Part shown: piece by piece, positions 21,332 to 23,428 of the stretch
How the letters are laid out: every line of letters starts with the position of its first letter
How positions within the stretch are numbered: the stretch's first letter is position 1
Origin: Acidobacteriaceae bacterium
Lineage (GTDB): Bacteria > Acidobacteriota > Terriglobia > Terriglobales > Acidobacteriaceae
Length of the DNA stretch: 64,000 nucleotides
NCBI GenBank assembly: GCA_025462735.1
Contig: JAOAPC010000010.1
Span: 62,001 to 126,000 of the forward strand
Direction of reading: 5' to 3'
Position numbers and translations under genes: made by a program
The notes under the pieces: model-generated
The model's database searches: none
Seen by the model: only the letters and a program-made list of their open reading frames with translations
What the model was told of the DNA's origin: nothing

Positions 21332-21346
21332 GTGCAATTGATTGCA
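21332..21346 (+). repeat. Hairpin-like repeat copy c (GTGCAATTGATTGCA)
   Basis: Intergenic, upstream of HEPN gene. Confidence 0.7.
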
Positions 21347-21538
21347 ATTCTCGGGATGCAACAAGCTTTTCCACGTCGGGCTCGATCCAAACTCTATCCC
21401 ATGCTGAATCAGCCAAAGCTCGCTTGAAAACTTTTCTGCTTTTCAATCGGTTTGCTATAGCTAACATAGAGCACGCCACTTGAGAGTAGTTATCTTTTCG
21501 TTTGCCCCGACCGTCCTGGTGCTAAGCTGTGCTCAGCT

Positions 21539-22357
21539 ATGAGCGCGACTGCTAACTCGAGCAAACCTTACGAAAGCAACCAAAATCAGCCATGGTCCTC
21601 CGGGCCGATGGAGATTCTCTTGCACGGGATCGAGCTGCTCAAACGCGACAGCGACACCAATCGCCGACTCGCGATACTGAGCATCGACAATGCCGTCGAG
21701 CTGATGATTAAGACTTTTCTTGGCCTTCCTCACCGAGTGACGGGCATCAAACTGAGCAAGAAAGATTACGAGGAGCTCAGCCAGAGCTTTCCCCGTCTGC
21801 TGGATGCTGTTCACGAACTGGCTCCGGACAAGCTCCGAGACTACGACATCTCAGAAATTGAGTGGTTCCATCGTCTTCGTAACGAACTCTACCATCAAGG
21901 CAATGGCCTCACCGTGGAAAGACAAAAGGTTGTCGCTTATGCAGAGATCGCAAGGGGAATCTTCCATCAGTTATTCGGACGTGATCTGCCCATGACCCAC
22001 GAGTCCGCCGACTCAAAGAGCTCGCTTCACGCTGCGATTACACGGCGCGGTGTCGAGCCTTTTTGCGATTCCACGAAAGCGTGGTTCTTCGTTAATTCAG
22101 ATGGTAGGGGCTATTTAGCGGCTACGGCCAATGCAAAGGGTAGTTGCAGCCTTAGAATATTTGACGCGGAGACAGGTGAGTTTTTGAAGAAACAATACAG
22201 TAGAGGCAATTATCAAGAGGCATTTCGAGATTTTCTCAGTGGTTCAACGAAACTTCGAGTTCGATCCCAACCCAATCTCGAACGCGACTGCCGGCCGCAA
22301 CTCCCAACTAATATACTTCACGAATTGAAGGGTCAGTTCCAGCCGCGGAAGTCATAA
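21539..22357 (+). CDS. HEPN-domain protein, putative RNase
   Basis: 'AILSIDNAVELMIKTFLG...EIEWFHRLRNELYHQGNG' has an Rx4H motif (RNELYH). Confidence 0.7.
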   Translation: MSATANSSKPYESNQNQPWSSGPMEILLHGIELLKRDSDTNRRLAILSIDNAVELMIKTFLGLPHRVTGIKLSKKDYEELSQSFPRLLDAVHELAPDKLRDYDISEIEWFHRLRNELYHQGNGLTVERQKVVAYAEIARGIFHQLFGRDLPMTHESADSKSSLHAAITRRGVEPFCDSTKAWFFVNSDGRGYLAATANAKGSCSLRIFDAETGEFLKKQYSRGNYQEAFRDFLSGSTKLRVRSQPNLERDCRPQLPTNILHELKGQFQPRKS

Positions 22358-22367
22358 GTTCACGTCG

Positions 22368-23228
22368 TCACGAATGCGGCATTGCGAACGTAGACGGGAC
22401 GCAGCCCTTCGGTGCGATCCCATACTTGAAATCCAAGAATTGCTGGAGATCTCGCGGGACGGACCCACTCAGCTCCTGCCAGGTCACAATCTTGCATCGG
22501 GTTCTGAGGTGGGGAATGCTAATGCACTTCGTGATCGCATACCATGCCTCCGTCAGATCGGGACGACGCCCGTCCACCACTACGCAGAATTCTAGGTTGA
22601 GAGCGTGTGCTGCCAGGACATTGCGGATGAGCTGGTACGACACGTACTTCCCATCGAGTTTCGGCATTGACTTGAGGTCGAATACCTCTGCTAGGTCGCG
22701 ATACGATTCCACCACCCCAGCATCTTTGATCTGAAAGTCGGCTTCAGTCAGCTTTGATTCGACTAGGAGCCCGCCAAGTTTCATGTCCACTTCTGTTCTG
22801 TCAGTCCGCCCCGAGAGAAGTGGAACCCGCGCCTTGTATCCGAACTCAGGAACGTCTCCGCTTTCGACTCCTAGGCTGGAGGTTAAACATTTAATGCTCA
22901 ATGTCGTCGGGTGACAAAAAACATTCATCAACAGGGCGTCCGAACTCATGCAGGAATCAAGTTCTTTCCAGGCTCTTTCGGAGCGGGGCAGAGATCTCGC
23001 TGCCTGGCTATGAATCTTTTCCAACCGGTGATTCCACGATGGCTGGCCGAGAATTGCGGTGTACGTTGCGTCCAAAAAATTGCCATGCCTAACTGCATCG
23101 GGAGATGGTTCATAAACGATGACCGGCATATCTCCATAGCTGGACACGTGCTGCAGCTGCTGAGACGCAGCGTATGCAGCATTCCGGGCACTCAATTCCT
23201 GACGAAGTAAGACTGCATACGCGCTCAT
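22368..23228 (-). CDS. PD-(D/E)XK nuclease superfamily protein (PGN_0703-like putative restriction endonuclease)
   Basis: 'RTEVDMKLGGLLVESKLTEADFQ' has D-x(n)-ExK catalytic spacing; convergent with HEPN gene, 10-nt gap. Confidence 0.72.
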   Translation of the reverse strand: MSAYAVLLRQELSARNAAYAASQQLQHVSSYGDMPVIVYEPSPDAVRHGNFLDATYTAILGQPSWNHRLEKIHSQAARSLPRSERAWKELDSCMSSDALLMNVFCHPTTLSIKCLTSSLGVESGDVPEFGYKARVPLLSGRTDRTEVDMKLGGLLVESKLTEADFQIKDAGVVESYRDLAEVFDLKSMPKLDGKYVSYQLIRNVLAAHALNLEFCVVVDGRRPDLTEAWYAITKCISIPHLRTRCKIVTWQELSGSVPRDLQQFLDFKYGIAPKGCVPSTFAMPHS

Positions 23229-23412
23229 CGATGCCCGTCTCTATTCCCTTGATTTTTACGTGTGCAAGGTCGAGCCACTGTCATTCTACGATGGCAAGCA
23301 AGCTACACACACGGTCACCACCAACCACTACAGACCGTTCTGCGTTGTTGTTGAAATATTCCCATTTGGCTCACAACGTGATCCCATTCCTTGGTAGCGT
23401 TCTACAGATCCA

Positions 23413-23428
23413 GTGCAATTGATTGCAC
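23413..23428 (+). repeat. Hairpin-like repeat copy d (GTGCAATTGATTGCAC)
   Basis: Intergenic, upstream of the nuclease gene; ~60 nt around it aligns with copy b. Confidence 0.7.

What the first reader, a model, noticed from the sequence alone, without database searches (positions are those of the whole stretch)
21332..23428. Convergent HEPN + PD-(D/E)XK nuclease cassette between direct repeats: candidate defence module
Seen: a 272-aa protein with an RNELYH motif (Rx4H) and a 286-aa protein with 'TEVDMKLGGLLVESK' (D-x(n)-ExK), convergent with a 10-nt gap and bracketed by direct copies c and d. Established: HEPN proteins with Rx4-6H are often RNases, and PD-(D/E)XK proteins of the PGN_0703 type are annotated as putative restriction endonucleases; both are frequent in defence systems. 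Inference: this is a compact two-nuclease anti-phage or abortive-infection cassette. I do not recognise this pairing as a named system.
Basis: partly seen in the sequence, partly recalled or inferred. Interest (0 to 1): 0.8.

Follow-up and report, generated by a model that had tools for sequence, protein, structure and literature searches.

The report
Two nuclease genes in defence island
Two predicted nucleases, one aimed at RNA and one at DNA, sit side by side in a mobile DNA island inserted at a tRNA gene of an acidobacterium; they are probably two separate anti-phage tools rather than one system, and the short palindromes that bracket them turn out to be a signature repeated throughout several related anti-phage islands and almost nowhere else.

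Summary
Window 21539-22357 (+) encodes a HEPN protein (invariant R114-N-x3-H119) and 22368-23228 (-) encodes a PD-(D/E)XK protein (Pfam PF22558 REase-ARP, 139 bits; D148, E157, K159 invariant). They are convergent, 10 nt apart, and bracketed by identical 15-bp repeats. The inference of a conserved two-nuclease system is not supported. None of 31 other REase-ARP places held a HEPN relative, and none of the HEPN places read held a REase. The pair probably recurs once, on one near-relative contig that I could not read. The HEPN protein is itself a fusion: its C-terminal domain is also attached to a NucS-like nuclease and to a coiled-coil/zinc-ribbon protein. The bracketing repeats matter more. 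TGCAATTGATTGCA occurs 4 times in this 4.36-Mb genome, all inside a 22.7-kb island with 41-bp att repeats at tRNA-Gln. Two other islands (tRNA-Arg, tRNA-Met) carry the same palindrome 4 and 11 times, always inside their att repeats and nowhere else in their genomes. Their cargo matches Mza-, DISARM- and DRT-type defence proteins. Best reading: HEPN and REase are independent defence cargo in one palindrome-delimited slot of a tRNA-integrating defence-island family. What the palindrome does (module boundary, operator or other) is unproven.

The parts
10724..10797 (+). tRNA-Gln (CTG), insertion site of the island; 41-bp att copy at 10750-10790
33479..33553 (+). partial tRNA-Gln, distal att copy (41 bp identical starting at 33501)
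32149..33351 (-). tyrosine integrase (PF00589, PF13356) next to the att site
   Evidence: 51% identical to the G083 integrase
31726..32037 (-). AlpA/excisionase-like HTH_17 protein, shared with the sister islands
29593..30066 (-). 157-aa island protein with relatives in G387 and G417, beside palindrome copies in all three
11579..12658 (-). 359-aa island protein with relatives in G083, G485 and (degraded) G367
21332..21346 (+). palindrome copy c, 192 bp upstream of the HEPN start codon
23413..23427 (+). palindrome copy d, 185 bp upstream of the REase start codon
11606..11619 (-). further exact palindrome copy, in the last codons of the 359-aa ORF
29307..29320 (+). further exact palindrome copy
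29431..29444 (-). palindrome copy with one mismatch
21539..22357 (+). HEPN (residues ~18-150, R114-N115-x3-H119) fused to accessory domain X (residues ~175-268)
22368..23228 (-). PD-(D/E)XK nuclease, REase-ARP family PF22558 (D148, E157-x-K159)

Best explanation
21332-23428 is one cargo slot of a 22.7-kb integrative element inserted in tRNA-Gln. The element belongs to a family of tRNA-integrating defence islands of Acidobacteriota marked by an intergenic 14-bp palindrome, TGCAATTGATTGCA. The slot holds two independently acquired defence nucleases. (1) A HEPN RNase, in which the C-terminal X domain probably senses or positions and the HEPN dimer cuts RNA through R114/H119 during infection. (2) A solitary PD-(D/E)XK nuclease (REase-ARP) that probably cuts DNA through D148/E157/K159. 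Shown: domains, conserved catalytic residues, the island with its att sites, confinement of the palindrome to the islands, and defence-type cargo of sister islands. Inferred: nuclease activity, anti-phage role, independent action, and the role of X.
For: Domains and residues: PF22558 at 139 bits; catalytic residues invariant; HEPN fold matches. Island: 41-bp att repeat at tRNA-Gln, integrase and excisionase-like protein. Palindrome: all 4 exact and the single 1-mismatch copies of the genome are inside the island. Sister islands: G083 (tRNA-Arg, 47-bp att; Vsr, DCM, MzaC, MzaE) and G387 (tRNA-Met, 47-bp att; DrmA, RT_UG19), with every palindrome inside the att limits; related excisionase-like protein in both. 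Clustering: 79 pairs within 40 kb against 0.10 expected. HEPN relatives lie in hsdM-hsdS-HEPN-hsdR operons in G069 and G227. Domain X is also fused to a NucS_C-like nuclease. Independence: no pairing at 31 other REase places.
Against: No protein of the slot matches a PADLOC model, and no phage phenotype is known. Other genes of this island look unrelated to defence (phosphoesterase, vanadium-chloroperoxidase-like). REase-ARP elsewhere is a single-copy chromosomal gene with shared neighbours in 7 genomes, and stands beside a Y-family polymerase in 3, which could mean a repair role. A probable co-occurrence on one relative's contig leaves room for a functional pair.
Confidence: 0.6

Rival explanations
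1. A true two-component defence module: HEPN-X and REase-ARP act together (one cutting RNA, one DNA, or one restraining the other), and the convergent layout with flanking palindromes is how the module travels.
For: Convergent, 10 nt apart, palindromes 192 and 185 bp upstream of the two start codons. The best relatives of both proteins share a longest-contig length of 36,677, so the pair probably persisted over 12-19% protein divergence.
Against: No HEPN or X domain at 31 other REase places, and no REase at the other HEPN places read. Genomes G227 and G254 hold both genes far apart. Over 6,000 REase-ARP proteins exist, against one HEPN-X gene in 399 family genomes. Convergent genes are not an operon.
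Confidence: 0.18
2. REase-ARP is a chromosomal DNA-repair or DNA-processing nuclease that was picked up by the island; only HEPN-X is a defence gene.
For: REase-ARP is usually single copy (56 of 300 class genomes), shares neighbours in 7 genomes and lies beside a Y-family polymerase in 3. tblastn finds none in 50,697 phages or 72,556 plasmids.
Against: In most of the 12 places read at about 8 kb flank the neighbours differ, as for a mobile solitary gene. Here it sits in a palindrome-bracketed slot of an island whose relatives hold defence genes.
Confidence: 0.15
3. The palindromes are operators of an island regulator (for example the HTH_17 protein) that switches defence genes on together, in the manner of RptR sites in a defence-island promoter. 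This concerns the repeats and is compatible with either reading of the genes.
For: Palindromic 6-2-6 site; 31 of 32 copies intergenic by a simple gene caller against 16.8 expected; copies upstream of both genes here; the islands of G083 and G387 with close HTH_17 relatives carry the palindrome. Precedent: RptR binds palindromes in a defence-island promoter (PMC12255303).
Against: Several G387 copies lie between convergent gene ends, where no promoter is expected. G370 has 5 copies but no detected HTH_17 relative. No promoter match near the genes.
Confidence: 0.3

Closest known systems
HEPN RNases (Anantharaman et al. 2013, PMC3710099), nearest Pfam models HEPN_RiboL-PSP (PF18735) and HepT-like (PF01934)
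   Same: Rx4H motif with a polar residue after R, in a helical domain that superposes on HEPN structures; relatives sit inside type I restriction operons
   Different: No Pfam model hits the window protein itself; most relatives carry a second HEPN domain where this one carries domain X
REase-ARP, Pfam PF22558
   Same: Full-length match at 139 bits (cut-off 27), with invariant D...ExK
tRNA-integrated genomic islands and ICE-like integrative elements
   Same: tRNA target, 41-bp att duplication, tyrosine integrase, AlpA-like excisionase
   Different: Carries a dispersed 14-bp palindrome confined to the element; no conjugation genes were noticed
Defence islands carrying Mza, DISARM or DRT systems
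   Same: Sister islands with the same palindrome carry these systems' proteins (MzaC, MzaE, DrmA, RT_UG19)
   Different: The window island carries none of them; its candidate defence genes are the HEPN/REase pair
RptR operators in a phage-defence island (PMC12255303)
   Same: Short palindromes repeated in a defence island
   Different: RptR sites are 6-bp TAGCTA repeats in one promoter; here a 14-bp site is scattered over the whole element, also between convergent genes

Membership tests
HEPN superfamily | Rx4-6H motif, polar residue after R | tested here: met
   R114-N115-x3-H119 invariant in 19 sequences; motif definition from PMC3710099
HEPN superfamily | helical-bundle fold of known HEPN structures | tested here: met
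   AlphaFold N-domain pLDDT mostly 75-94; Foldseek 2hsb prob 1.00 TMt 0.68, 8xeh 0.66, 3o10 0.67, although E-values are about 0.1 or higher
HEPN superfamily | RNase activity | not testable with these tools
   needs a biochemical assay
PD-(D/E)XK / REase-ARP (PF22558) | match over the curated cut-off | tested here: met
   139.4 bits, cut-off 27
PD-(D/E)XK / REase-ARP (PF22558) | conserved D...(D/E)xK on adjacent core strands | tested here: met
   D148, E157, K159 invariant in 41 sequences; strands 146-151 and 154-158, helix 198-210, strand 213-218 in a model of pLDDT 93.6
PD-(D/E)XK / REase-ARP (PF22558) | structural match to a solved PD-(D/E)XK nuclease | tested here: inconclusive
   Foldseek against PDB gave no significant match of any kind
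Conserved two-gene defence system | recurrent adjacency of the two genes in unrelated genomes | tested here: not met
   0 of 31 other REase places; G227 and G254 hold both far apart; one probable near-relative contig
Named anti-phage system (PADLOC) | model match of its proteins | tested here: not met
   no match for either protein
HEPN-MNT toxin-antitoxin | adjacent MNT nucleotidyltransferase | tested here: not met
   neighbouring gene is REase-ARP; no MNT among the flanking genes scanned
tRNA-integrated genomic island | tRNA target, att duplication, integrase | tested here: met
tRNA-integrated genomic island | empty site in relatives | tested here: inconclusive
   genus mates keep the neighbouring 124-aa gene, but no tRNA-Gln or ABC-F gene was found in the stretches fetched
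Genome-wide REP/BIME palindromes | scattered over the whole chromosome | tested here: not met
   copies in G000, G083 and G387 only inside the att-bounded elements
Integron cassette array | intI integrase and attC sites | not tested
   no dedicated attC search was run; the conserved part of the site is only the 14-bp core

The most novel reading that the evidence does not exclude
TGCAATTGATTGCA is the boundary site of a previously undescribed modular system. Integrative elements of Acidobacteriota gather and swap anti-phage modules (DISARM, Mza, DRT, Mrr, HEPN/REase) one per palindrome-delimited slot, so that the palindrome can be used to find new defence genes; the HEPN-X/REase pair is one such module.
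Probability: 0.3. Interest if true: 0.85.

Novelty: new variant of a known kind. Interest (0 to 1): 0.55.

Why it matters
If the palindrome marks module ends or regulates modules in these islands, it gives a simple sequence handle for finding unknown anti-phage genes in a poorly studied phylum, and a way to ask how defence islands gain or control their genes. The HEPN-X fusion also points to an uncharacterised accessory domain shared by an RNase, a NucS-like nuclease and a coiled-coil/zinc-ribbon protein widespread in the family.

Tried and rejected
(a) A conserved HEPN-REase pair: rejected after surveys of 300 class, 399 family and 396 phylum genomes and tblastn between fetched loci. (b) Phage or plasmid carriage of REase-ARP: none in 50,697 phages or 72,556 plasmids. 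The HEPN domain is on four Leptospira plasmids and two IMG/VR contigs, without REase. (c) The palindrome as a genome-wide repeat: rejected. (d) The palindrome as part of a longer repeat: the flanks of 40 exact copies show no further conservation. (e) HTH_17 as the universal partner of the palindrome: not supported for G370. (f) Foldseek for the REase fold: no useful match. (g) Papers on REase-ARP, PGN_0703 or the palindrome sequence: none held. (i) The empty site in genus mates could not be shown.

Full report
OBSERVATION. Both ORFs, the 10-nt convergent gap and the flanking repeats are as described. The first protein has the HEPN motif R114-N-E-L-Y-H119, invariant in 19 homologues. Relatives of it, not the window protein itself, hit HEPN_RiboL-PSP and HepT-like Pfam models. 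The AlphaFold model of its N-terminal part matches solved HEPN domains (2hsb prob 1.00, 8xeh, 3o10; TM-score by target 0.66-0.68), with weak E-values because the hit covers about half the query. The second protein is REase-ARP, PF22558, at 139 bits. D148, E157 and K159 are invariant in 41 homologues and lie on or beside two neighbouring strands followed by helix and strand in a confident model (pLDDT 93.6). Foldseek against the PDB found no relative, so the fold rests on Pfam, motif and topology.

A MISSED DOMAIN. The HEPN protein has a C-terminal domain of about 95 residues ('X', 175-268). Most relatives have a second HEPN domain there. X recurs at the end of a NucS_C-like nuclease in G013 (47% identity over 112 residues), after a longer, apparently double HEPN part in P0011 and P0013, and at the end of a CT398-like coiled-coil/zinc-ribbon protein present in this genome and, as far as the proteins were read, in most of the other 63 family genomes that matched. 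A domain shared by an RNase and a DNase suggests a sensing or targeting part; this is inference.

NO CONSERVED PAIR. PF22558 occurs in 56 of 300 class genomes, nearly always once. HEPN relatives are rare. The two genomes with both, besides this one, have them on different contigs or about 2.1 Mb apart. tblastn of both proteins against all fetched loci found both only in this genome's own locus, across 31 other REase places and all other HEPN places. HEPN relatives in G069 and G227 lie between hsdS and hsdR of type I restriction operons. REase-ARP neighbours vary, apart from shared neighbours in 7 genomes and an adjacent Y-family polymerase in 3. One probable recurrence remains: the closest relatives of both proteins, P0002 and P0123, have the same longest-contig length of 36,677.

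THE ISLAND. A tRNA-Gln at 10724-10797 and a partial copy at 33479-33553 share 41 identical bases. Between them lie 22.7 kb ending in an excisionase-like HTH_17 gene and a tyrosine integrase. The pair is in the middle.

THE PALINDROME. The repeats c and d share the core TGCAATTGATTGCA. TGCAATNNATTGCA occurs exactly 4 times in 4.36 Mb, all in this island. One further copy with one mismatch is also in the island, and there are none elsewhere; the window has no copy with two mismatches. In 251 genomes of the family there are 55 exact copies in 28 genomes, against one for the reversed control pattern in the rows shown. They cluster: 79 pairs within 40 kb against 0.10 expected. G387 has 11 within 36 kb, G083 has 4 within 21 kb, and G370 has 5 within 9 kb.

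SISTER ISLANDS. G083's cluster lies between 47-bp att repeats at tRNA-Arg, and G387's between 47-bp att repeats at tRNA-Met; all copies found there, including one-mismatch copies, are inside. G083 shares with the window the integrase (51%), the HTH_17 protein (52%) and the 359-aa protein (42%). G387 shares the HTH_17 protein (49%) and the 157-aa protein (31%). G417 has a closely related integrase beside tRNA-Gln, and the 157-aa protein on another contig beside palindromes. Cargo: Vsr, C5 methylase, MzaC and MzaE in G083; DrmA and RT_UG19 in G387; Mrr, a NucS-like protein and a NACHT protein in G370. Palindromes are intergenic in 31 of 32 cases against 16.8 expected by the same simple gene caller, and they tend to separate these modules. 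Some lie between convergent genes, which does not suit an operator; no further conserved bases flank the core.

MECHANISM. I commit to this: the slot carries two independent defence nucleases, an RNA-cutting HEPN with an X targeting domain and a DNA-cutting REase, as cargo of a tRNA-integrating defence island (0.6). Shown: domains, residues, island, repeat distribution, sister cargo. Inferred: activities, anti-phage role, independence. The palindrome is either a module boundary or a regulatory site; RptR (PMC12255303) is a precedent for the latter. I cannot decide between them with the data in hand.

CAVEATS. The gene caller used for one search is crude and misses genes. The family survey is a sample of one genome per species. 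Defence labels are model matches, not tests. The statement that this palindrome-marked island family is undescribed rests on one sequence search and keyword searches in an open-access library.

Noticed in passing
window 11606, 21333, 23414, 29307, 29431; G083 (L128, L129), G387 (L125-L127), G370 (L130): A 14-bp palindrome, TGCAATTGATTGCA, is confined to tRNA islands carrying defence genes and is nearly absent elsewhere in those genomes; function unknown.
   Followed up: partly
window 21539-22357 residues 175-268; L051 8008-8844; L056 7776-8876; P0011; P0012: An unnamed domain of about 95 residues is shared by a HEPN protein, a NucS_C-like nuclease and a CT398-like coiled-coil/zinc-ribbon protein of the family.
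   Followed up: partly
L053 8085-8726 and L054 7722-8381: Short HEPN relatives sit inside type I restriction operons in the order hsdM-hsdS-HEPN-hsdR.
   Followed up: partly
L060 6901-8989, L067 6342-8419, L030: REase-ARP lies next to a Y-family DNA polymerase gene in three genomes, divergent in the two fully mapped ones, which hints at a DNA-repair link.
   Followed up: partly
P0006, P0012, P0014: Some HEPN-X relatives carry an extra cysteine-rich segment (CDDC...CxxC) at one end.
   Followed up: no
window 13887-16720: Three adjacent minus-strand genes, one with a CyanoTRADDas two-transmembrane domain and one with a weak ZorA-like match, may be another defence or membrane module of the island.
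   Followed up: no
L140 9920 and 13938-14831 (G349): A single palindrome copy lies about 4 kb from a REase-ARP gene (55% identical) in another genome; it may be chance.
   Followed up: no
L143 4103 and 4120-4859 (G367 C171): A degraded relative of the 359-aa island protein ends at a palindrome copy, as in the window, suggesting a decayed island in a genus mate.
   Followed up: partly
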